Origin: Pseudomonas sp. B21-040
GTDB taxonomy: Bacteria; Pseudomonadota; Gammaproteobacteria; Pseudomonadales; Pseudomonadaceae
DNA length: 64,000 bases
Reading direction: 5' to 3'
Assembly (NCBI RefSeq): GCF_024748695.1
Contig: NZ_CP087176.1
Span: 1,605,501 to 1,669,500 of the forward strand
Every line of letters starts with the position of its first letter. Position 1 is the first letter of the stretch. The notes under the pieces were generated by a model. The model was not told the DNA's origin. It did no database searches and was given only the letters and a program-made list of their open reading frames with translations. The translations under genes were made by a program, and so were the position numbers. Below are positions 1 through 11,307 of this stretch, in pieces.

Positions 1-2631
1 GCCAACGGCACTTACACCTATACGCTCACCTCGGCGCCCAAAACCTCGCCGAACGCCAATGACGGGCCAAACACCCTGAGTGAAAGCTTCACCTACAAAG
101 CCACCGATGCCGCGGGCAACAGCGTCACCAGCACCATCATCGTCAACATTGTCGATGACGTGCCCACAGCGGTGGCCTCGGATCGCTCGGTGGCAGCGGT
201 GGAGATCGACTCCAACATTCTGATCGTGCTCGACATCTCCGGCAGTATGGCCGACGACTCCGGCGTGCCGGGCCTGTCGCGGCTGGAGTTGGCCAAGCAG
301 GCCATCAGCGCCTTGCTCGACAAATACGATGACCTGGGCGATGTGAAAGTGCAGCTTGTCACCTTCAGCAGCACCGCCTCTGACAGGACGTCGGTGTGGG
401 TCGACGTGGCAACCGCCAAGACACTGCTTGCCGGGCTGTCCGCGGGCGGTGGCACCAACTACGATGCTGCCGTGGCAATGCTTCAGACAGCGTTCAATAC
501 GTCCGGCAAACTGACCGGTGCGCAGAACGTCGGGTACTTCTTCTCGGATGGCAAACCGACCACCGGCCAGGACATCGGTGCGTCGGACGAGGCAACGTTG
601 AAAGCCTTCCTCGACGCCAACGGCATCAAGAACTATGCGATCGGCCTGGGCAGCGGCGTGAGCAACGCCAACCTCAACCCGATCGCCTATGACGGCAGCA
701 CCCACACCGACAACAACGCGGTGGTGGTAACCGACCTCAACCAACTCAACTCGGTGCTCTCGGGCACAGTGGTCGGCGCGCCGGTCACCGGTACGCTGCT
801 GGAGGGCGGCACATTCGGCGCTGATGGCGGCTTCATCAAAACCCTTACGGTTGACGGCACCACGTACACCTTCGACCCTAAAGGCAACACCAACCAGGGT
901 TCGCTGACCTTCAGTGGCGGCGTCAACCACGGCACGTTCAACACGGTGAACAACAGCATCAGTATCGCCACCAACAATGGCGGCACGCTGGTGGTTAACC
1001 TCGACACCGGTGAATACACCTACACCTCGCAAAAATTCACGTCGGTGGTGATCACCGAAAACATCGGCTTCACCGTCAGCGACAACGACGGCGACCTGGC
1101 CAGCTCCACGCTGACGGTCAAAGTCATTCCGAACGCGGCACCGGTGGCCGTCGATGACCACATCATCACCAACGTGATGTCGGGCAATATCGTGGTGCCG
1201 GGCGAGTTGCTGCTGGCCAACGACACCGATGCCGACAAGGATCCGCTGACCGCATCGCCCACCAACTTCGCTACCGGTTGGGTGGCCAAGGGCGCGGACT
1301 TCACCGGCACCGGCGCGATCAATTTCAAAGGCACCAATGACACCGCGGCCAACCAGAACCTGGCCGACGTGCGCAATGCCTTTGCGGGCAACACTGCGGC
1401 GATGACGGCATTGCTGGTGGTCAGCGGTTATCTGGGGCAGGTGACTGGCAACAACGCCAACGATGAAGACCTCATCACCGTGAAGCTGAAAGCGGGTGAA
1501 ACCCTCAATCTGGATCACAACCTGGCGGCCGGGCACATCACCATGGAGTACTCCCTCAATGGCGGCGCCTTCATCGGCATCGGGGACGGAGAGACGATCA
1601 CCGCCTCGGCGGATGGGACCTACCGGATCCACATCACCAACATCGAAAACACCAGTGGCGGCAACGCCAAAGGAGACGAAAACTACCAGTTGACCATGTC
1701 CGTCAACTACGCCGGCGCCCATGACAGCACACCGGACGCCCACGGCACCTACACCGCCAGCGACAACCACGGCGGCAGCGACACCGCGGCCGTGACCATC
1801 ACCTACCAGGACGGCCACACCCTCACCGGCACCGCGGGCGACGACGTCATGGTGGCGGGCACCGGCAACAACATCATCAACGCTGGCGACGGCAACGACG
1901 TGCTCACCGCTGGCACCGGCAACAACGAACTGCATGGCGGCGCTGGCAATGACTTGCTGTTCAGCGGCACGGGCAATGACCTGCTCGACGGCGGCACGGG
2001 TATTGACACCGTGAATTACACCCACGCCACTGCCGGGGTCACGGTTGACCTGAGCTTGCTCACCCCGCAAAACACAGGAGGCGCTGGCACTGACACCCTC
2101 ACCGGCATCGAAAACCTGGTCGGCTCCAATTTCAATGATGCCCTCACGGGTGACAACAACAGCAACGTCATCAACGGCGGGTTGGGCGACGACATCCTCA
2201 AGGGTGGCGGTGGTGACGACTTCATGATTGGCGGGTTGGGTAACAACACCCTCACGGGCGGGGCAGGGGCCGACACCTTCCAGTGGCTCAAAGGCAACAG
2301 CGGCCACGACGTCGTCACCGACTTCACCCCAGGCACCGACAAACTCGATTTGTCGCAACTGTTGCAAGGTGAAAACAGCACCACGGCCTCGCTGGATGAC
2401 TACCTGCATTTCAAAGTGGTCGGCAGCGGCGCCTCGGTCATCACCAGCATTGATGTCAGCGCCATGGCCGGCGCCACACCGAACCAGACCATCGACCTGG
2501 CGGGCGTCGACCTCGCCAGCCACTACGGTGTCACGCCGGGGGCGGGCGGTGTGGTGGCCGGGGGGCATGACACGGCGACCATCATCACCGGCATGCTCAA
2601 CGACCATTCGTTGAAGGTGGACACCGTGTGA
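1..2631 (+). CDS. 3' part of a giant LapA-type RTX adhesin with VWA domain
   Basis: The reading frame is open from the first base of the window, so only the last 876 residues are present. The visible order is: end of a cadherin/VCBS-like repeat, a von Willebrand factor A domain (about residues 70-245; metal-site motif DISGS), a further long beta-rich region, then about seven RTX nonapeptides of the GGxGxDxLx type (about residues 600-760), and a C-terminal tail ending in DHSLKVDTV. RTX repeats plus an uncleaved C-terminal tail are the established signature of type I secretion. LapA/MapA adhesins of Pseudomonas have this C-terminal layout and are anchored in the outer membrane by an N-terminal plug, which is outside the window. 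lapG and lapD lie downstream and fit a LapA-class role in biofilm attachment. Whether it is lapA, mapA or another paralogue cannot be decided from this end, so no symbol is given. Confidence 0.9.
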   Translation, partial: ANGTYTYTLTSAPKTSPNANDGPNTLSESFTYKATDAAGNSVTSTIIVNIVDDVPTAVASDRSVAAVEIDSNILIVLDISGSMADDSGVPGLSRLELAKQAISALLDKYDDLGDVKVQLVTFSSTASDRTSVWVDVATAKTLLAGLSAGGGTNYDAAVAMLQTAFNTSGKLTGAQNVGYFFSDGKPTTGQDIGASDEATLKAFLDANGIKNYAIGLGSGVSNANLNPIAYDGSTHTDNNAVVVTDLNQLNSVLSGTVVGAPVTGTLLEGGTFGADGGFIKTLTVDGTTYTFDPKGNTNQGSLTFSGGVNHGTFNTVNNSISIATNNGGTLVVNLDTGEYTYTSQKFTSVVITENIGFTVSDNDGDLASSTLTVKVIPNAAPVAVDDHIITNVMSGNIVVPGELLLANDTDADKDPLTASPTNFATGWVAKGADFTGTGAINFKGTNDTAANQNLADVRNAFAGNTAAMTALLVVSGYLGQVTGNNANDEDLITVKLKAGETLNLDHNLAAGHITMEYSLNGGAFIGIGDGETITASADGTYRIHITNIENTSGGNAKGDENYQLTMSVNYAGAHDSTPDAHGTYTASDNHGGSDTAAVTITYQDGHTLTGTAGDDVMVAGTGNNIINAGDGNDVLTAGTGNNELHGGAGNDLLFSGTGNDLLDGGTGIDTVNYTHATAGVTVDLSLLTPQNTGGAGTDTLTGIENLVGSNFNDALTGDNNSNVINGGLGDDILKGGGGDDFMIGGLGNNTLTGGAGADTFQWLKGNSGHDVVTDFTPGTDKLDLSQLLQGENSTTASLDDYLHFKVVGSGASVITSIDVSAMAGATPNQTIDLAGVDLASHYGVTPGAGGVVAGGHDTATIITGMLNDHSLKVDTV

Positions 2632-2649
2632 CCTGACGTCTGAAACGAC

Positions 2650-2690
2650 AAAACCCGCCATTCCTGGGTAAGGAATGGCGGGTTTTTTGT
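2650..2690. terminator. Bidirectional intrinsic terminator
   Basis: A 12-bp perfect stem (ACCCGCCATTCC / GGAATGGCGGGT) is followed by TTTTTT on the plus strand and by a T-run on the minus strand. It separates the convergent adhesin gene and DUF6124 copy 1 and can end both transcripts. Confidence 0.9.
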
Positions 2691-2714
2691 TGTCCGTTCG
2701 GTACAGAGACTTCG

Positions 2715-3074
2715 TTAGCCTTGCGGGTCGACGTTATCCAGCATCCGGTTCACTGCCAGTTCACCCAACATCACGGAGTGTTGAATGCCGAGCAGGGTGT
2801 GGCGCTGTGTACCGTTCAGTTGCCCGGCGAAATCGCTCAGCATGACGCTGGCGGACGCCAATGACTCACAGGCGTTGACCAGCAAGGTTTCGTCATCGGT
2901 CTCGGGAGCAATGAAGAAAATGGTGCTGGGCTTGCGCGGCGTGTCTTTGGGAATGACCGGTTTGAGGTAGTAATCGAGGGCGCGGTCGACGGCGTTGTTG
3001 AGCTTTTTGGAATCGGTGGATTCGTAGGGGGAAACGTCGTCGGTTTCGGGTGGGTTGGGTGTGATTTTGAACAT
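2715..3074 (-). CDS. DUF6124 family small protein, copy 1
   Basis: A 119-residue protein beginning MFKITPNPPETDD, the typical start of the Pseudomonas DUF6124 family. Its function is unknown. It is predicted soluble and mostly helical, with a conserved middle (LDYYLKPV) and a helical C-terminus (MLGELAVNRMLDN). The start is chosen at the ATG preceded by GTAGGAG at good spacing. The frame stays open further upstream, but that extension lies in a conserved structured leader and is probably not translated. It lies downstream of Ig-like protein D with no terminator between, and upstream of a strong terminator. A second copy of identical length occurs about 5.3 kb away in the same arrangement behind protein C. 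Confidence 0.85.
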   Translation of the reverse strand: MFKITPNPPETDDVSPYESTDSKKLNNAVDRALDYYLKPVIPKDTPRKPSTIFFIAPETDDETLLVNACESLASASVMLSDFAGQLNGTQRHTLLGIQHSVMLGELAVNRMLDNVDPQG

Positions 3075-3079
3075 GGTGA

Positions 3080-3421
3080 AACTCCTACAGAAAATGGAGC
3101 CACCAATACTTGTCGCTAAACAAGTGAGGGTGGCGGCTGCACGCAGGTTAGCGAACCGGGTGTAGGCGCCCGGCAGATCCAAAGATCTCCCGCGCACAGC
3201 CGCCATGACAACAATCGCAAACATGAACTGTCTGCAAGAGTGTTTGGAGCGCTGTTGCGCCTACAAAGGTTCGGGTCGCTAAACCCGATCGCTGATTCGT
3301 CAGCGACCGGGAAACAATAGAGCCCGGCCCTTAGGCGCACAAGCCGGCGGATTCTGGCGCAGTCGTAGGCAGCGGCGCAAGGATGTGTAGCCTGAGAGAG
3401 TGTCTGGAGGTGTCTTTTAAA
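3080..3421 (-). promoter_or_regulatory. Conserved structured leader upstream of DUF6124 copy 1
   Basis: This ~340-nt region has a close homologue before DUF6124 copy 2. The first ~88 nt (3337-3421) differ from copy 2 at about one position. The rest keeps helices rather than sequence: TCGCTG/CAGCGA (3289-3306), CGGGT-N6-ACCCG (3272-3287), a ~15-bp helix (3132-3147 with 3189-3204) enclosing AGATC/GATCT (3175-3188), and ACTTG/CAAGT (3108-3125). Two loops carry TTTAGCGA (minus strand), and TTCGCTAA between them is complementary, so alternative pairing is possible. Compensatory changes against copy 2 support an RNA role. The function is unknown: a cis-regulatory leader or a small RNA. Confidence 0.6.
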
Positions 3422-3520
3422 CACTGGTATTTAATGTTGTCTCAGGTCACGGAGCGGGTGCAGGACGGATAAATAAATACGTCCCCTTTGTCGTTGCCAA
3501 CGCCAGATTCACCGCAACGT

Positions 3521-6500
3521 CTAACGGATACAGACTGCAAAAATGTTCCATCCATGATTACCAGTCTCTACGTACCAACCAGAAAAATCTCTTATCAATA
3601 CAGCTTTCTGCGTAAAAATGGGGGCTGCGCACCAGTAAAAGCCAAAATCGTCGGGGTCGTCGTCGTATATAGTGGTACTAAATTTATCCAGCACCCGGAG
3701 ATGCTGAATGCGGTCAATGGGACTAGCACCTGATACGGATTGAAACCAGGTTGCGACTCCACTGATCTGCATATACGTGGCACTGCGATACAGTCTCTTG
3801 ACATTTGTAACCGTCACATCAAATGAAGCGGATTGGCCGGTTGTATCGCTGACTGTGATTTTAGTCGAGCCGTTCTCCAGGCTACGAACTACTCCATTGC
3901 CATCAACCGAGGCAATTTGAGCATCAGATGATGTGTAAGTGAAGGGAGGAGCGCCACCCGAAGCTGCCCGATTTGCAGTGGTACCAACGGGGTCTATTCC
4001 TGAGAGAACCCAGGGCAGGCCTGAGTCTTTGATTGAGAAGTTCAGCCCGGATAGCGCGAGTGGAGAAGTATCAACAATTAGCCCGGACGCCACAGTCAAG
4101 GTACGCACATTCGAATAGGTTGGTGCGCTGTGATAAAGCGATAGCGCGTACAAGCGACGTGCACCGACCGCTACGCTGATGATGAGTTCCCAGTCGCCGG
4201 TGGTTGGATGGGCGGTTACTTTCCCTTTGGAGACTGCACCTGGATCATCACCCTCAAAAATCTCGACTTGCTGGTCGTTGCTTGCCTTGCCTTTGAGTTT
4301 CAAGGTGGTGCTGGTCGTGGTTCCCGCCTCTGGAATCTCCTTGCCGCTATCGTCTTGCACGTTGGTGAGCGTCGGGACTATCACAGCGACAACGGTAAGG
4401 GTGCGCTCCGCCGAAACCTGGCCCGTGCCGTAAAGCGCCTTGGCGGTAAAACGGTGCTCCGCCACCGCCAGGCCGCTGACGGTCAGGGTCCAGATGCCCG
4501 TTGTCGGATCGGCGATGGGCTGATCTTTGGACACGGTGCCGTCGAGTACATCGACTTTCTGACCTTTACTGGCCGTACCGGTCAGCACCACGCTGGTCTC
4601 GACGGTGTTGCTGCCGTCGGCGATCTCGTCGTTACTGGGCGAGCCTTTCACCGTGGTAATGGTCGGGGCTACAACCGCGACCACCGTGAGGGTGCGCTCC
4701 GCCGAAACCTGGCCCGAGCCGTAAAGCGCCTTGGCGGTAAAACGGTGCTCCGCCACCGCCAGGCCGCTGACGGTCAGGGTCCAGATGCCCGTTGTCGGAT
4801 CGGCGATGGGCTGATCTTTGGACACGGTGCCGTCGAGTACATCGACTTTCTGACCTTTACTGGCCGTACCGGTCAGCACCACGCTGGTCTCGACGGTGTT
4901 GCTGCCGTCGGCGATCTCGTCGTTACTGGGCGAGCCTTTCACCGTGGTAATGGTCGGGGCTACAACCGCGACCACCGTGAGGGTGCGCTCCGCCGAAACC
5001 TGGCCCGAACCGTAAAGTGCCTTCGCGGTAAAACGGTGCGCCGCCACCGCCAGACCCGCGACGGTCAGGGTCCAGATGCCCGTTGTCGGATCGGCGATGG
5101 GCTGATCTTTGGACACGGTGCCGTCGAGTACATCGACTTTCTGACCTTTACTGGCCGTACCGGTCAGCACCACGATGGTCTCGACGGTGTTGCTGCCTTC
5201 TGGAATCTCGTCGTTACTGGGCGAGCCTTTCACCGTGGTAATGATCGGGGCTACAACCGCGACCACCGTGAGGGTTCGCGCTGCTGAAACCTGGCCCGAA
5301 CCGTAAAGTGCCTTCGCGGTAAAACTGTGCGCCGCCACCGCCAGGCCGCTGACGGTCAGGGTCCAGATGCCCGTTGTCGGATCGGCGATGGGCTGATCTT
5401 TGGACACGGTGCCGTCGAGTACATCGACTTTCTGACCTTTACTGGCCGTACCGGTCAGCACCACGATGGTCTCGACGGTGTTGCTGCCTTCTGGAATCTC
5501 GTCGTTGCTGGGCGAGCCTTTCACCGTGGTAATGGTCGGGGCTACAACCGCGACCACCGTGAGGGTGCGCGCTGCTGAAACCTGGCCCGAACCGTAAAGT
5601 GCCTTCGCGGTAAAACTGTGCTCCGCCACCGCCAGGCCGCTGACGGTCAGGGTCCAGATGCCCGTTGTCGGATCGGCGATGGGCTGATCTTTGGACACGG
5701 TGCCGTCGAGTACATCGACTTTCTGACCTTTACTGGCCGTACCGGTCAGCACCACGATGGTCTCGACGGTGTTGCTGCCGTCGGCGATCTCGTCGTTACT
5801 GGGCGAGCCTTTCACCGAGTCAATGGTCGGAGGATCCAGGCTCACCGCTTCACCGACAATGAACTCCAACAGATTCGAATAACTGTATTTTCCTGTCACG
5901 TTCCGCAAGATCCGGTAGCTCGCCGTTATCTTCTTCCCACGATTGGGTTCGATGTGGTCGGTCACGAACTGAACGTTGAGGGCGAAGTTCACGTCCCTGT
6001 CCTTGGAGAGCGCATTGAGGGTAATCGAGTCCTCTTTCTTGCCGGTCACCTCCCCGAGCCAGGTGTAAGTCACGACGTCTCCGGACACGGTCGGGGTCGC
6101 GATCGGCCTCGGCGCGGTCAGTTTTCCGATGCCTCCGGGCAGTTCGTCGGGCTCTAGCGCGCCATCCACTTCACCGAGAACAATCGGTTTGACCAGTTCG
6201 AATTGCGCTTCACCCACGTTCAACAGCGCCGCATGCTGTGAACCACGACGGACGATGGTGCCGTTGTCATCGCTGAGCAGGTTGTAAGAAAGATCCAGGG
6301 TGCCGCCGTCGAGGGTCTTGAGGTGCTTGCCCTCGACAACGATGACGAAACCATCGGGGTCATTGGCTTCATCCGTGCTGGGGACGAACCACTCCAGTTC
6401 GGGGTCGTACGTGGTGAGGTCCTGCCGGGTGCCGAACCATTTGAGTTCTATCCCATTCTCGGCGGTGATCAGCGGGTCATGAGGAATGCGAATGCGGGTG

Positions 6501-7723
6501 CCGGCCAGATCGGGATCGAGTGCTCCACTCGTTGCGTCCAGAGCGATGGGCGCGGCCAGGCGTTTGGCTTCACCGATGATGTTGATGAAGCGGCCCTTGG
6601 AGCGATTGACGATCGTGCCGGAACGCTCCGGTACGTAGGAAAACACCCCTTGGGTTTTTGCCAGCGCACGGGCGCCCGCGTTGTCGAGCAACACTTCGAC
6701 CACGGTCGGTGGTTTCTTCTCGATGGCTTGGCGCACAGTGATGTTGATGGGATCACCGTCAACCGTAGTGCCCTTGAGGCTCATGATAATGACGTCGTTT
6801 TGATTGAACTCGGCTGATGCCGCCCAGACATGGAGCAGCAGCTTCTCCTCGCCCAGCGTGTCAAGGTCGAGCATGTTGCCGTCAGCCTGCTCGAGAATGG
6901 GCGCGTCCAGCAGCGAGTTACCGGTGTCGACGACGATGCGTGTTTCCTTGCACCAGTCCTCAGCCTGGTTGTGCACCCGGTCGCGGACCATAAAGGTCAC
7001 GGCCAGGCCTTCGGTGCCGGAGTCCCCGGCGGCCAGGATCGTGGCTTCATCAATGTGAACCTTGACCGGATTGGTCAGGGGCGCGTCGATTTGCGCCTGG
7101 GTGACTGGCGTGGACAGCACCAGTTGGCCGCCCCAGCTCACCGTGATCACGTCGCCCACCGCGATATTTTCGTAGGGCCGGTCAGTGCCGCTACCGGGTT
7201 TGGCCTGGACGATGACATCCACGCCGTTTTTTGCGCTGTCCTTGTCGACGCCGTCCTGAACGACCTCCGGCGGGAAAAAGGCCATGTATAACCCGGAATG
7301 ACCAAAATCCGGGTCTGTGTCCTGGCCGCCGGGCAGTTCGAATTTGACGTAGAGTTTGAGCGGTGGCGCAAACAGTTCGGGCTGCTGCGACAACCGCGTT
7401 ACGCGGTAGGCCAGTGCCCAGTTGCCCGTTTGCAGGCGGCCGGGGGCGACGAACAGCGTGGTGCGCTCGCGGAGTTCGACGGGGTCACTGATGGTGTGTT
7501 GGTCCACCACATTGTTGTTGAGCAGCAGCTCGACTTTGTCGCCCAGGCTCTTGCTCGACCAGATGGGAATCTGGACTTTCAGGCCCTTGTCAGGAAAGTT
7601 GCCCACCGCCGCCGCGAGGTTGATGCCCCATTCATCAGCGGGTGCCTGGGGCTCGATAGCGCCGGGAATCTCCGGGGTGAGCAGCGCCAGGGGGGCGAGG
7701 TTTTTCAACGGTTGAATGAGCAT
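3521..7723 (-). CDS. Ig-like modular repeat protein D (1400 aa)
   Basis: A large beta-sandwich protein of unknown function. Residues 1-630 are a head shared with protein A (start [15 protein letters not shown]). About 632-1116 hold five near-identical 97-residue Ig-like repeats (each with [17 protein letters not shown]), followed by one diverged repeat (to about 1213), a BIG2-type domain ([12 protein letters not shown]) and a C-terminal domain with WCAAP and FAVCIR, reminiscent of lectin-like folds with a disulfide. No Sec signal, lipobox, RTX repeats or membrane segment is seen, so export is unexplained. The start is set at the ATG behind GGCAGGAG that aligns with protein A; an upstream in-frame ATG adds 13 residues. 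A conserved palindromic element lies 68 bp upstream. A structured leader and DUF6124 copy 1 follow without a terminator. A surface or binding role is inferred from the domains only. Confidence 0.8.
4375..5828 (-). repeat. Five tandem 291-bp coding repeats in protein D
   Basis: Five copies at an exact 291-bp period encode 97-residue Ig-like units. Copies differ at only a few positions (for example ADGS/PEGS, AEHRF/AAHSF), so they are nearly identical in DNA. This suggests recent amplification or gene conversion and makes copy number prone to change by recombination. Confidence 0.9.
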
Positions 7724-7790
7724 TGCGAAAACTCCTGCCGGAGGAATGAGCGACAACGTCATTTATGGTGTGATTCAGGCGTTCTGCCTA

Positions 7791-7832
7791 CTGTCAAATC
7801 TGACAGGTCTTGGCAGGTTTAAGACGAACGGT
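7791..7832 (-). promoter_or_regulatory. Composite upstream element of protein D
   Basis: The palindrome CTGTCAAATCTGACAG (7791-7806) lies 68 bp before the ATG, and 11 bp further upstream is the box TTTAAGACGAACGGT (7818-7832, plus-strand reading). The same two boxes at the same spacing precede proteins A, B and C. A dyad of this size suits a dimeric regulator or a hairpin; the cognate factor is not known. Confidence 0.7.
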
Positions 7833-7903
7833 TGCTCCAACAATCGGCTCGATGAACGATCCCGTATCGCTCTACGGGCCGATGCCACAGAGTTTGAAAC
7901 GAC

Positions 7904-7944
7904 AAAACCCGCCACTTCTGTGTGAGGAGTGGCGGGATTTTTTC
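7904..7944 (-). terminator. Intrinsic terminator after DUF6124 copy 2
   Basis: A 12-bp stem (CCCGCCACTTCT / AGGAGTGGCGGG, one wobble) has T-runs on both sides. It is very similar in sequence to the terminator after DUF6124 copy 1, supporting duplication of the whole module. It ends the C-DUF6124 unit before the upstream element of protein D. Confidence 0.85.
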
Positions 7945-8042
7945 GTCGGTGAAATCGCTATCGTCGGATCGACGCCCGGAGCATGCCCGCGAAGCGGCCC
8001 GATCAAACACCTCACAGATACGCGTTTGACTGTAGATCCGCG

Positions 8043-8402
8043 TCAGCCCTGTGGGTCGACGTTGTCGAGCATCCGGTTCACCGCCAGTTCGCCCAACATG
8101 ACGGAGTTTTGAATGCCGAGCAGGGTGTGGCGCTGTGTACCGTTCAGTTGTCCCGCGAAATCACTCAACATCACGCTCGCTGAGGCCAACGTCTCACAGG
8201 CGTTGACCAGCAGGGTTTCGTGATCGGTGTCGGAGCCGAAGAAGTAGATCGTGCTGGGTTTACGCGGGGTGTCTTTGGGAATGACCGGTTTGAGATAGTA
8301 GTCGAGGGCGCGATCGGCGGCGGTGTTGAGCTTTTTGGAATCGGTGGTTTCGTAGGGGGAGACGTCGTCGGTTTCGGGCGGGTTGGGTGTGATTTTGAAC
8401 AG
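8043..8402 (-). CDS. DUF6124 family small protein, copy 2, with CTG at the start position
   Basis: Closely related to copy 1 and, if started at the equivalent codon, also 119 residues long (xFKITPNPPETDDV...). At the position of copy 1's ATG this gene has CTG. A good ribosome site (AAGGAGC) sits about 8 nt upstream. The frame has no other ATG before the leader; the next in-frame ATG is at 8750, at the 5' end of the leader. It may start at CTG at low efficiency, start elsewhere, or be a recently silenced copy. The body of the frame is intact, with no stop or frameshift. It follows protein C and precedes a terminator. Function unknown. Confidence 0.65.
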   Translation of the reverse strand: MFKITPNPPETDDVSPYETTDSKKLNTAADRALDYYLKPVIPKDTPRKPSTIYFFGSDTDHETLLVNACETLASASVMLSDFAGQLNGTQRHTLLGIQNSVMLGELAVNRMLDNVDPQG

Positions 8403-8407
8403 GGTGA

Positions 8408-8750
8408 AGCTCCTTTGAAAAACAAGACCACCAGAACCTGTCGCTAAACACGTAAGGGTGGCGACTGTATGCAGGTTAGCGAACCGGTCAAAGGTACCCG
8501 GTAGACCCGAAGGTCTCCCGCATACAGCCACCATAACGTTATTGCCGACGTCAAAAGTCTGCAACAAAGTCTGGAGCACTGATGCACTTTGAATAGTCCG
8601 GGTCGCTAAACCCGATCGCTGATTGGCAGCGATGCGGAAACGATAAAGATCAGGGACAAAGCGCACAAGCCGGCGGATTCTGGCGCAGTCGTAGGCAGCG
8701 GCGCAAGGATGTGTAGCCTGAGAGAGTGTCTTGAGGTGTCTTTTAAACAT
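8408..8750 (-). promoter_or_regulatory. Conserved structured leader upstream of DUF6124 copy 2
   Basis: Homologous to the leader of copy 1. Helices visible: ATCGCTG/CAGCGAT (8615-8633), CGGGT-N6-ACCCG (8599-8614), a long helix (8460-8475 with 8517-8532) and AGACC/GGTCT, whose minus-strand loop is TTCG (8503-8516). Relative to copy 1, C-G pairs become T-A in the long helix and T-A becomes C-G in the inner hairpin, so pairing is kept while sequence changes. It begins only 43 nt after the stop of protein C, with no terminator between, so it may be part of a C-DUF6124 transcript. Confidence 0.6.
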
Positions 8751-8793
8751 TTCGTTTTTATTTGCCCAATATCCATAACGCCATGCAGAGGGG

Positions 8794-11241
8794 TTATTGC
8801 TTCAACACCCATGTGGTGACGGTGTAGGGGAGTGGAGTTGAATGAAAGTACCAAACGGGTCGTTCGTTTGTGTTGTACCTAATCGACAGGTGCGAATCTT
8901 GATTACCTTGTGCCGGTACCGGAATGCGAGCGATTCGGATTGTATTAGCCCCAGTGTTATCCAGGTATTCGGATGTTTTTGGCCATTTTCTGTAGATATC
9001 GGTTAACAGGATCTCTCTTAGGCTGACATCCTGGAAATCGACAATTTGGCCGTGGCTCGCTGCCCAGGCGGTGCCTTCGGCATGGTTCATTTTTTTGGGA
9101 CTAACGATCAATCGATACACATTGGATACTTGCACCTGGAAATTGGCGGTAATACCGCTGTTGTCCGTGATCCGTATCGTTGTGCGGCCATTGCCCGTCC
9201 CAACCACCTTGCCATCCATGACTAATGCAATCGTTGGGTTGTCGGAGGTATAGGTGTAAGGAGGGGTTCCCCCCGTTGGAATGCGAGTAGCGGTATTGTT
9301 CGGTGCGTCTAAGCCAGAAAATGTCCAGGTGACATCGGCATGAACTGCGAAGCCGTCCAGAATCATGTCGGATGGGTCGATGATCAGGACAGCGGATTTA
9401 ACGATGTACCCGCGTGACGGAAATGACACTGCTGTTGCATTGTCGGCAACACCCTCAAAATTCACCCTGAAACTGATCGTCAGCGCACTGCCATCCTTCA
9501 GTGTTTTCAACCAATCAAGCGGCACTGGCCGACCCAACCCGGGAAGCGTGCCATGGGGCTCGCCAGTGCGGTCGTCGAAGTAAACCGGGGCGCCATTCAT
9601 ATCGAATCCGTCATACCGCAACCAGACATTTTGCCCCAGCACCTGATGGGGCCACTCAGCCACCCGGAGCTGATCCGTGGCCTGCAGTTTGCTCACATCC
9701 AGTGTCGTACCCGGTGAACCGTCGACGTGCGGTGTCGGTAAACCGGGATGGCTATCCGGGATCCGGCCAATGGACGCGTTCAACACTGGCGACACATAGG
9801 ACTTGCCGTCACGAAACAGCAGGTAACTGAGCTTGACCGGTTTACCCATGTTCGCCGCAACGAACGCCTTGTCCAGCGGGAAGTTGGCGCGGCTATTGGC
9901 GTTCAGAGGCTGGGCGGTGAAGGTGGGAGAGCCCGCACCGGGGGCGCCCTCCACAATGAGCTGGACTGTGTCGCCCACGCGGTGGCCAAGCACTTCAACC
10001 TGGCCGTTGGCGCCTTGCAGGTTGGCGACGTCCAGCGGATCGAGCACGGCATTGACGGATTTCTGCAGCCTTGGCGCGAACAGGTCCGGCAAGCCTTCGC
10101 CGATGACCCGGGCCGAGGCCACTCGGGAGGTGCCGATCGGCGTGCCGTTTCTGAACAACTGATACGTTGCCGTCACCAGGCTGCCGGCAATGACGCTGTC
10201 GTTGGGCACTTGCAACACGCAAGGTTTTTTCTGCCCGAACTCGTCCGCGTCGACGACGCCATTTGCCGTCACCACCACGTCTGGCTGGCCGGTGACTTTG
10301 GCGGTGTAGGTCGCACTGAGAGTATCGCCGGGCAGGAAGCGCGGATCGTTGGTCAGCACAATCAGCAGCAGCGGATTCTTGCCCAGTTTTTCCAGGTCGA
10401 TGAGGCTGGGGTCGTCTGCCGCGTCGCTCTGGATTTCCCGCAGGATGGGCATCGGCAAGCGGCTGCCGGCCAGGTCCACATCCACGATCTGCGTCGCCGA
10501 CCAGGGGGAATCGGTATCGGGCCCATTACCGAGCTGGTCGGTGACCGTGTAGGAAAACTTGAATTGCGGATGGTCCCTGGCAGTCTCCAGATCGGCGCGG
10601 CTCACAGTGAAACACACGGTGACAGGCTCGTCGGAACCGGGACTGGGCGCTTGCAGTTCCGTGACCTTGTGAAACACATCGTGGCCATTGCAGTTCAGGC
10701 GGATGAGGTCGTGGGCCCGGCAAAACGGGTAGGAGACGCACACTTGAGCGCCCGTTGCGGGAAAGTCCGGGCCGACACCATTTTTAATGGCATCCGGCAA
10801 AATCAGCTCCAGCCGGGAGTGGCCATCCTCGCCGGGATCCGTGTCCTGATTGCCGGGCCGAATGGCGTTGTACAGTAGCTCCAGCGGTGGCTCGGAAGTG
10901 CCCATGTTCTGGCTGCTGCGCGTGACGGTATAGGTCAGGCGATTGATGATGTCGGCGAATAGCAACTTTTTCGGAATGTAGAGGGTGACGGTGTCGTCCT
11001 CGGCCTGAGTGAGTTGACTGTCGATGCCGGGCTGACCGTTCAGATTGAGGGAGACGGTATCGCCCGGTTCTTGACCCAGGTAGGGGTCAACCAAAACAGT
11101 AGCGCCCATGGGGGCCAGGTCATAAATACGCAGGGGTACGCCAACATCTGCGCCCACGACCGGCTCGGTGGCTTCGGGCACTCTGGGGGCATAGAGCACC
11201 AAAACCGTGTTATCGAAAGCGTCGGCTTGAACGCTGGTCAT
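8794..11241 (-). CDS. Ig-like modular protein C (815 aa)
   Basis: Member of the four-protein family. It has a beta-rich head with the family pattern G-H-S-x-L followed by an inserted GV and a GD/W segment (about residues 1-620), a BIG2-type domain (about 625-710; GGTPPYTYTSDN) and a unique C-terminal domain (about 711-815, aromatic-rich, ending TTWVLKQ). It has no tandem repeat array, signal peptide or membrane segment. The start is set at the ATG with TCAGGAG at good spacing; an ORF extension of 15 residues upstream has no such site. The conserved palindrome lies 67 bp upstream. The lapD gene is transcribed toward it. The DUF6124 leader follows closely. A role as surface or ligand-binding protein is inferred from the fold types alone. 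Confidence 0.78.
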   Translation of the reverse strand: MTSVQADAFDNTVLVLYAPRVPEATEPVVGADVGVPLRIYDLAPMGATVLVDPYLGQEPGDTVSLNLNGQPGIDSQLTQAEDDTVTLYIPKKLLFADIINRLTYTVTRSSQNMGTSEPPLELLYNAIRPGNQDTDPGEDGHSRLELILPDAIKNGVGPDFPATGAQVCVSYPFCRAHDLIRLNCNGHDVFHKVTELQAPSPGSDEPVTVCFTVSRADLETARDHPQFKFSYTVTDQLGNGPDTDSPWSATQIVDVDLAGSRLPMPILREIQSDAADDPSLIDLEKLGKNPLLLIVLTNDPRFLPGDTLSATYTAKVTGQPDVVVTANGVVDADEFGQKKPCVLQVPNDSVIAGSLVTATYQLFRNGTPIGTSRVASARVIGEGLPDLFAPRLQKSVNAVLDPLDVANLQGANGQVEVLGHRVGDTVQLIVEGAPGAGSPTFTAQPLNANSRANFPLDKAFVAANMGKPVKLSYLLFRDGKSYVSPVLNASIGRIPDSHPGLPTPHVDGSPGTTLDVSKLQATDQLRVAEWPHQVLGQNVWLRYDGFDMNGAPVYFDDRTGEPHGTLPGLGRPVPLDWLKTLKDGSALTISFRVNFEGVADNATAVSFPSRGYIVKSAVLIIDPSDMILDGFAVHADVTWTFSGLDAPNNTATRIPTGGTPPYTYTSDNPTIALVMDGKVVGTGNGRTTIRITDNSGITANFQVQVSNVYRLIVSPKKMNHAEGTAWAASHGQIVDFQDVSLREILLTDIYRKWPKTSEYLDNTGANTIRIARIPVPAQGNQDSHLSIRYNTNERPVWYFHSTPLPYTVTTWVLKQ

Positions 11242-11307
11242 GGGGTAACTCCTGAAGGATAGGATGGGCTGATGGGTATCAGACACCCGGTCCGGAGCAG
11301 CCGGCTA

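What the first reader, a model, noticed from the sequence alone, without database searches (positions are those of the whole stretch)
3080..8750. Structured leader RNA before both DUF6124 genes, with compensatory base changes
The two ~340-nt leaders keep at least four helices. In the long helix a C-G pair is T-A in the other copy, and in its inner hairpin T-A becomes C-G with a TTCG loop. Two TTTAGCGA loops and one complementary TTCGCTAA segment per leader would permit alternative folds, as in riboswitches or attenuators. I do not recall a named RNA family with this pattern.
Basis: partly seen in the sequence, partly recalled or inferred. Interest (0 to 1): 0.8.

Follow-up and report, generated by a model that had tools for sequence, protein, structure and literature searches.

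The report
Forty-three C4 antisense RNA leaders
The structured leader in front of both genes is a known phage-type antisense RNA called C4, and this bacterium carries at least 43 of them, most with their own pairing code for the start site of the small gene they precede.

Summary
Each leader holds the parts of a phage P1-type C4 antisense operon: target hairpin c4-a1b1 (RF03163; 56 and 55 bits) and C4 antisense RNA (RF01695; 73 and 79 bits), followed by a second target pair (a2, b2) ending on the Shine-Dalgarno of the DUF6124 gene. The "two TTTAGCGA loops and one TTCGCTAA" are a1, a2 and antisense loop a'. The order matches annotated P1 c4-icd. All 43 b' loops differ, and a'/b' fit their own a2/b2 far better than other copies' (0 of 20000 permutations); stem windows and a coding control show no such advantage. 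The unit is a ~0.7-kb single-gene cassette. C4 occurs in 184 of 199 same-genus genomes but 17 of 273 others in the class. Likely mechanism: RNase P-processed C4 blocks translation of its own gene. What the small proteins do remains unknown.

The parts
3337..3342 (-). copy 1 promoter -35 (TTGTGC), 17-nt spacer
   Evidence: read; TTG-N19..21-TANNNT just before the a1b1 hairpin in 30 of 37 anchored copies vs 0.5% of shuffles (pattern chosen after looking at the sequences, 6 of 43 copies not anchored)
3314..3319 (-). copy 1 promoter -10 (TATTGT)
3268..3320 (-). copy 1 c4-a1b1 target element (RF03163)
   Evidence: 56.4 bits, cutoff 46.7
3276..3282 (-). a1, upstream copy of the a' target (TTAGCGA)
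3257..3265 (-). b1, upstream copy of the b' target (TGTAGGCGC), 9 of 9 complementary to b'
3126..3210 (-). copy 1 C4 antisense RNA (RF01695)
   Evidence: 72.7 bits, cutoff 45
3161..3169 (-). b' antisense loop
3148..3154 (-). a' antisense loop (TCGCTAA)
3113..3119 (-). a2 target (TTAGCGA)
3084..3089 (-). b2 target (TGTAGG), overlapping the Shine-Dalgarno AGGAG (3082-3086)
2715..3074 (-). copy 1 DUF6124 gene, ATG start, 119 aa
   Evidence: PF19619 81.9 bits
2650..2686 (.). hairpin with U run after copy 1 gene (likely terminator)
   Evidence: 16-nt perfect inverted repeat
8663..8668 (-). copy 2 promoter -35 (TTGTGC), 17-nt spacer
   Evidence: read; for the family
8640..8645 (-). copy 2 promoter -10 (TATCGT)
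   Evidence: read
8595..8646 (-). copy 2 c4-a1b1 target element (RF03163)
   Evidence: 54.7 bits
8603..8609 (-). a1
8587..8592 (-). b1 (TCAAAG, 6 nt)
8454..8538 (-). copy 2 C4 antisense RNA (RF01695)
   Evidence: 78.7 bits
8488..8494 (-). b' antisense loop (CCTTTGA)
8476..8482 (-). a' antisense loop (TCGCTAA, same as copy 1)
8441..8447 (-). a2 target
8412..8418 (-). b2 target (TCAAAGG), overlapping the Shine-Dalgarno (8410-8414)
8043..8402 (-). copy 2 DUF6124 gene; CTG at the aligned start codon
   Evidence: PF19619 77.2 bits (on 8043-8408); start read
7904..7940 (.). hairpin after copy 2 gene (likely terminator)
   Evidence: 16-nt arms, 88% complementary

Best explanation
Each leader is a C4 antisense operon leader like the one in front of icd-ant in phage P1. 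One promoter makes a transcript a1b1 - C4 - a2b2 - DUF6124. RNase P (inferred from the conserved GG(C/T) and CCACC ends) frees a ~77-nt C4 RNA. Its loops a' and b' pair with a2 and with b2 over the Shine-Dalgarno, so the small gene is translated little while C4 accumulates and expressed in a burst when C4 is scarce. Most cassettes carry their own a'/b' code, so most C4s should act mainly on their own gene. Shown here: family membership, anatomy, private complementarity, covariation. Inferred: transcription, processing, repression, and action in trans as well as in cis.
For: Both Rfam families over gathering cutoff, in P1 order. In annotated P1 the order is a1, b1, C4, a2, b2, icd, and the same helix score gives a2 -11.8 and b2 -14.1 kcal/mol there (target windows placed from the annotation), against means of -12.9 and -14.3 for the 43 copies. 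Non-cognate means are -8.1 and -7.9; 0 of 20000 permutations reach the cognate mean. Combined, the own target is best for 33 of 43 and in the top two for 42 of 43. Only 9-nt windows over a' and b' show a clear cognate advantage; stem windows and a coding control do not. a'/a2 helix: 92.3% of cells paired, 87 cells changed on both sides vs 19.6 shuffled and 4-16 slid. The b2 helix overlaps a Shine-Dalgarno triplet in 39 of 43. GG(C/T) in 43 of 43, CCACC in 40 of 43. Replicated in two more genomes and in 83 C4s of named genomes.
Against: No RNA or protein data. With wide segments that include the constant CCGG stem, RNAduplex put the own target first for only 2 of 43 (b') and 2 of 43 (a'). With the loops alone it is first for 24 and 17 of 43; only the sum gives 33. 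The upstream sites a1/b1 are less private: own copy best for 10 and 9 of 43. Some cassettes have weak b' pairing (5028767-: rank 15, 647221-: rank 10; L206, L222, L252 of G160 and L249 of G010: -4 to -7 kcal/mol). 4 of 33 DUF6124 genes have no C4 hit. Copy 2 in the window lacks an ATG. In-cis attenuation would leave the same covariation.
Confidence: 0.86

Rival explanations
1. Cis-acting attenuator: within one transcript C4's a'/b' folds onto a2/b2 (or a1/b1), and the switch between folds controls the gene; no free C4 acts in trans.
For: a'/a2 and b'/b2 lie close together on the same transcript and covary; private codes fit cis action equally well.
Against: The RNase P-type GG(C/T) and CCACC ends are conserved in 43 and 40 of 43 copies. 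P1 C4 is annotated as a separate RNA with binding sites, and Acinetobacter C4-like RNAs appear processed from longer transcripts (PMC5320573).
Confidence: 0.12
2. Remnants of C4-type prophages: decaying copies of a phage immunity operon without present function.
For: C4 is a phage element; 4 of 43 copies lack an ATG 30-65 nt after C4; 11 DUF6124 and 10 DUF3077 loci were found in IMG/VR viral contigs.
Against: Homology between copies is largely confined to ~-200..+500 of C4. dN/dS is 0.098 between the two window genes, median 0.228 over 77 usable pairs. Pairing is mostly kept through code changes at syntenic loci. DUF6124 is found in 1 of 50,697 phage records (E<=0.01), near the record's edge, and in no PLSDB plasmid (E<=0.001).
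Confidence: 0.04
3. Ligand riboswitch or protein-responsive leader of a new kind.
For: Conserved multi-helix leader before a gene family of unknown function.
Against: The conserved core is C4 plus its targets; the most variable parts are the loops that match the target, opposite to a ligand pocket.
Confidence: 0.02

Closest known systems
C4 antisense RNA of phages P1 and P7 (Rfam RF01695), immI operon c4-icd-ant
   Same: Fold, order a1-b1-C4-a2-b2-gene, similar spacings, b2 near the ribosome-binding site
   Different: Here it precedes a small gene (DUF6124, DUF3077 or other), sits in ~0.7-kb chromosomal cassettes, and occurs at least 43 times in one genome with 43 different b' loops
Group 1 C4-like sRNAs of Acinetobacter baumannii AB5075 (PMC5320573; section 16 read, other passages seen)
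   Same: Many C4-like RNAs in one bacterial chromosome (21 in the group there), variable a' loop, apparent processing at GGW
   Different: The paper proposes varied unidentified RNA targets and, in what I read, names no linked target gene. Here most C4s have a matching a2/b2 target just downstream, b' is different in every copy while some a' are shared, and two of the controlled gene families have names
isrK of Salmonella prophage Gifsy-1 (RF01394)
   Same: Sub-threshold matches (32.1 and 30.9 bits, cutoff 50) over the a1b1 hairpins and adjoining sequence in both leaders
   Different: Below the gathering score; membership not claimed
c4-a1b1 (RF03163)
   Same: Over cutoff in both leaders
   Different: No difference found in structure; here it sits at the predicted 5' end of a DUF6124 transcript

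Membership tests
C4 antisense RNA (RF01695) | covariance-model score over curated cutoff | tested here: met
   72.7 and 78.7 bits vs 45
C4 antisense RNA (RF01695) | loop a' complementary to a target a2 just downstream of C4 | tested here: met
   7-nt match at +7 in both window copies
C4 antisense RNA (RF01695) | loop b' complementary to a target b2 on the ribosome-binding site | tested here: met
   6- and 7-nt matches covering AGG of the Shine-Dalgarno in the window copies; 39 of 43 in the genome
C4 antisense RNA (RF01695) | second target pair a1/b1 upstream of C4 | tested here: met
   RF03163 over cutoff in both leaders; in the genome 44 hits at E<=0.001, 21 of the 44 over cutoff
C4 antisense RNA (RF01695) | RNase P processing to ~77 nt | not testable with these tools
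   only sequence signs: GG(C/T) in 43 of 43, CCACC in 40 of 43
C4 antisense RNA (RF01695) | translational repression in trans | not testable with these tools
   needs reporter fusions
phage immI operon (c4-icd-ant) | downstream icd and ant genes | tested here: inconclusive
   first genes after the 43 C4s are DUF6124 (29), DUF3077 (5, three of them behind a short ORF), QslA-like (1), other small ORFs (8, one unresolved); icd and ant were not searched for as families
ligand riboswitch | match to a curated riboswitch family | tested here: not met
   no riboswitch among Rfam hits at gathering over the window, or at E<=1 over 2600-8900

The most novel reading that the evidence does not exclude
This genus has domesticated a phage immunity switch into a dispersed gene family: dozens of solitary cassettes per genome, each a small protein silenced by its own antisense RNA with a private, fast-changing code. 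Because the silencer is made by the same transcript, a cassette is quiet in a cell that already holds it and opens only when it arrives, by transfer or duplication, in a cell without the matching C4: a self/non-self test at the RNA level that marks newcomers with a burst of DUF6124-type protein.
Probability: 0.22. Interest if true: 0.85.

Novelty: new variant of a known kind. Interest (0 to 1): 0.62.

Why it matters
It gives two gene families of unknown function (DUF6124, DUF3077) a shared regulator: 29 of 33 DUF6124 hits and 5 of 6 DUF3077 hits of this genome follow a C4. It also supplies 110 natural antisense-target pairs in three genomes whose specificity can be compared and measured. At syntenic loci the b' code changes while pairing is mostly kept, a ready-made system for the evolution of RNA specificity.

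Tried and rejected
Wide-segment RNAduplex matrix: weak, because the segments included the constant CCGG stem; replaced by loop-only ungapped helices and controlled by the sliding-window scan. Leader as coding sequence: rejected. Common flanking gene or mobile element: flanking ORFs are diverse (a simple ORF caller that also picks antisense ORFs, no family search, so weak) and homology largely ends at the cassette. Phage or plasmid cargo: 1 of 50,697 phage records, in a tailocin-type cluster, no PLSDB plasmid, 11 + 10 IMG/VR loci. Selection against cross-talk: not supported; strong non-cognate b' pairs are about as common within as between genomes (171 of 3988 vs 414 of 8002), and G010 holds two pairs and G160 one pair with identical b'. 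Function of the small proteins: no PADLOC or NCBIfam hit for the DUF6124, DUF3077 and one other protein tested; of five tested in PHROGs only the DUF3077 one hits, a family of unknown function. DUF6124 model: confident two-helix hairpin (residues 61-83 and 89-114), low confidence before it (pLDDT 75, pTM 0.47); Foldseek gave no hit at E<=0.001, no entry named QslA among the 50 shown. DUF6124-DUF3077 homology: hhalign of small alignments did not support it (4% probability), but one gene (4436224) passes both Pfam cutoffs; left open. Sequence searches of the PDB with DUF6124 and DUF3077 profiles gave no hit below E 0.4. The DUF3077 structure job was never accepted.
Full report
WHAT IS THERE. On the minus strand of the window, two DUF6124 genes (2715-3074 and 8043-8402; PF19619) are each preceded by a homologous leader. 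A scan of all 64 kb against Rfam found four hits over cutoff, all in these leaders: c4-a1b1 (RF03163) at 3320-3268 and 8646-8595, and C4 antisense RNA (RF01695) at 3210-3126 and 8538-8454. Both copies share a' but differ in b', and b1 and b2 have changed with it.

POSITIVE CONTROL. The annotated immI operon of phage P1 (AF234172) has a1, b1, the 77-nt C4, a2, b2 and then icd. With target windows placed from that annotation, my script finds the annotated sites and gives a2 -11.8 and b2 -14.1 kcal/mol, like the means for the 43 copies (-12.9 and -14.3). Counted from the end of the 87-nt Rfam model, P1 has a2 at -1, b2 at +28 and the icd ATG at +46; the 43 copies have a2 at +2 to +9 and b2 at +31 to +45 in 41 of 43, with the start codon about +45 to +60. 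So the order is the same and the spacing close, not identical.

GENOME SCALE. The genome (one 6.75-Mb contig, unnamed) has 43 C4 hits, all over cutoff; the tool scored 150 of 1811 candidates, so 43 is a lower bound. It has 44 c4-a1b1 hits, 21 over cutoff, 33 DUF6124 hits, 6 DUF3077 hits, one of which is also a DUF6124 hit, and 2 QslA-like hits. Of the 43 C4s, 29 have a DUF6124 gene within 1.2 kb downstream. The other 14 precede DUF3077 (5; three of them 135-162 nt away, behind what looks like a short ORF), a QslA-like gene (1) or other small ORFs (8). Of these eight, five were searched in Pfam and had no accepted family, two are 91% identical to one of those, and one (1399047-) was not resolved. 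Four of 33 DUF6124 genes lack a C4; one of these keeps an a1b1-like hairpin. Homology between copies covers about -200 to +500 nt around C4; outside it the mean number of matching copies falls below 1 of 42, the exceptions including tandem and closely related copies. The unit is a cassette of ~0.7 kb: promoter, targets, antisense RNA, usually one small gene.

PRIVATE CODES. For each of 43 C4s I took the a' and b' loops and scored the best ungapped helix with every copy's downstream leader. Own pairs average -14.3 (b') and -12.9 (a') kcal/mol; other pairs -7.9 and -8.1. None of 20000 label permutations reaches the own-pair mean. All 43 b' loops differ; a' loops repeat in some copies. The upstream sites are less private: own means -12.5 (b1) and -13.4 (a1) against -9.7 and -10.6, own copy best for 9 and 10 of 43. 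Summed over a2 and b2, the own target is best for 33 of 43 and in the top two for 42 of 43. A sliding 9-nt control shows a strong own-pair advantage at a' (z -12) and b' (z -18.5) and at windows overlapping them; windows in the stems and the same windows against coding sequence stay within about z -2. An earlier version with wide segments was much weaker (own target first in 2 of 43 for each loop), because the constant stem dominated. In two more genomes, G010 (35 C4s over cutoff; a 36th, below cutoff, was left out) and G160 (32), own targets are best in 28 and 25. In 83 distinct C4s from named Pseudomonas genomes own pairs average -26.8 against -16.5 (50 of 83 best); these loci were picked by DUF6124 similarity and include close relatives, which lowers the rank. 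In 17 C4s of IMG/VR loci the own target is best in 11. Weak cases exist: 5028767- and 647221- in this genome, L129, L206, L222, L249, L252 and others.

COVARIATION. On a MAFFT alignment of the 43 copies, the C4 stems plus the a'/a2 helix have 94.6% of cells paired and 190 cells changed on both sides (48.8 in shuffles, 0 of 500 as high). The a'/a2 helix alone has 92.3% and 87 (19.6 shuffled; 4 to 16 when slid). For a'/a2 alone, the two measures that count pairs or pair types did not exceed shuffles (129 and 420 of 500 as high). b'/b2 was not tested this way because its length varies too much to align.

CODE TURNOVER AT ONE PLACE. Five loci share a syntenic tandem DUF6124 locus (L137 from P. chlororaphis; L172, L174, L177, L178 from the IMG/VR collection; shared flanks 78-96% identical). 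Their a' code is the same but three b' codes occur. Pairing with b2 is 9 and 8 Watson-Crick pairs for two codes; the third has 7 in L172 and a G-U-rich helix in L174. Among loci of the three genomes, 45 pairs share some flank (many of them short, probably repeats) and 2 of 45 have the same b'. Three pairs share both flanks and b' had changed in all 3; in one of them (L249) the own b' pairing is weak. I tested whether cross-talk is avoided within a genome: strong non-cognate b' pairs are nearly as common within (171 of 3988) as between genomes (414 of 8002), so drift or gene conversion suffices.

SPREAD. DUF6124 is in 158 of 199, 156 over cutoff. In the class-wide sample C4 is in 18 of 274 including this genome, the others with 1 to 6 hits. 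None of the 14 control genomes has either. Of 21 IMG/VR loci, 10 have a C4 within 450 nt, 7 have the tandem form and 4 show none, two of these near a contig end. That the window itself is Pseudomonas is inferred from the 92% best protein match.

PROMOTER AND PROTEIN. A TTG-N19..21-TANNNT promoter ends just before the a1b1 hairpin in 30 of 37 copies that could be anchored (shuffles 0.5%; the pattern was chosen after viewing the sequences), so the transcript should begin near the a1b1 hairpin. dN/dS is 0.098 between the two window genes and 0.228 at the median of 77 usable of 78 pairs: the protein is under purifying selection. AlphaFold2 gives a confident helical hairpin for residues 61-114 and low confidence before, without a significant PDB match. 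No function can be assigned.

WHAT IS KNOWN. Weinberg et al. 2010 list c4 antisense RNA and c4-a1b1 (PMC2864571, passages). The P1 mechanism and RNase P processing are taken from PMC5320573 (passages and section 16), PMC8198154 (passages) and PMC12197685 (passages); the original P1 papers were not read. PMC5320573 reports a group of 21 C4-like sRNAs in Acinetobacter baumannii, so many C4s in one chromosome is not new. In the library held (openly licensed PubMed Central papers only), no paper has the word DUF6124 or the Pfam accessions; one has DUF3077, in a passage that does not mention C4. I found no description of the Pseudomonas expansion in searches; of the papers listed there I opened only the four named above and saw the rest as listings.

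VERDICT. The leader is a genuine C4 antisense module. Its deployment, dozens of chromosomal cassettes mostly with private codes, is a variant that I did not find described. Repression by C4 is very likely by anatomy; why a genome keeps at least 43 of them is open.

Noticed in passing
window 3521-7762 and 8794-11286 (minus): Each C4-DUF6124 cassette follows a large gene on the same strand (1413 aa with five 291-bp repeats; 830 aa with a weak intimin-model match, 19.5 bits against a cutoff of 1400), and a large gene with glycine/aspartate-rich repeats (160-2631, plus strand; my reading, not searched) converges on copy 1.
   Followed up: partly
G000:C1:829628-830335 (L044): A C4 leader precedes a QslA-like gene (LasR antiactivator family; 34.7 bits, 36.3, cutoff 25); a locus sharing both flanks in G010 (L203) has a different b' code.
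   Followed up: partly
L137, L172, L174, L175, L177, L178; L190 (EU982300): A C4 operon with two tandem DUF6124 genes recurs at a syntenic locus; a DUF6124 gene lies at the edge of phage record EU982300, next to prtR of a tailocin-type cluster. That the two are the same locus was not tested.
   Followed up: partly
window 8563-8633 and 3219-3307 (minus): Sub-threshold isrK matches (32.1 and 30.9 bits) over the a1b1 hairpins and the adjoining nucleotides, suggesting that the 5' part of isrK and c4-a1b1 are related.
   Followed up: no
window 8400-8402; also G000 5028767-, 6515299+, 3939101-: Four of 43 cassettes lack an ATG 30-65 nt after C4 (CTG in the window copy).
   Followed up: no
G000:C1:925541 and 926569: Two cassettes about 1 kb apart in tandem; G010 has an adjacent pair (741014, 741736) with identical b' loops, likely recent duplicates.
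   Followed up: no
G000:C1:248392 and 1147218: Two c4-a1b1 hits below cutoff (41.3 and 30.6 bits) without a C4 hit nearby.
   Followed up: no
literature, PMC9630843 (one passage): A DUF3077 gene annotated as a pseudogene in P. putida was reported as reopened by a single-base insertion in a furfural-tolerant evolved strain.
   Followed up: no
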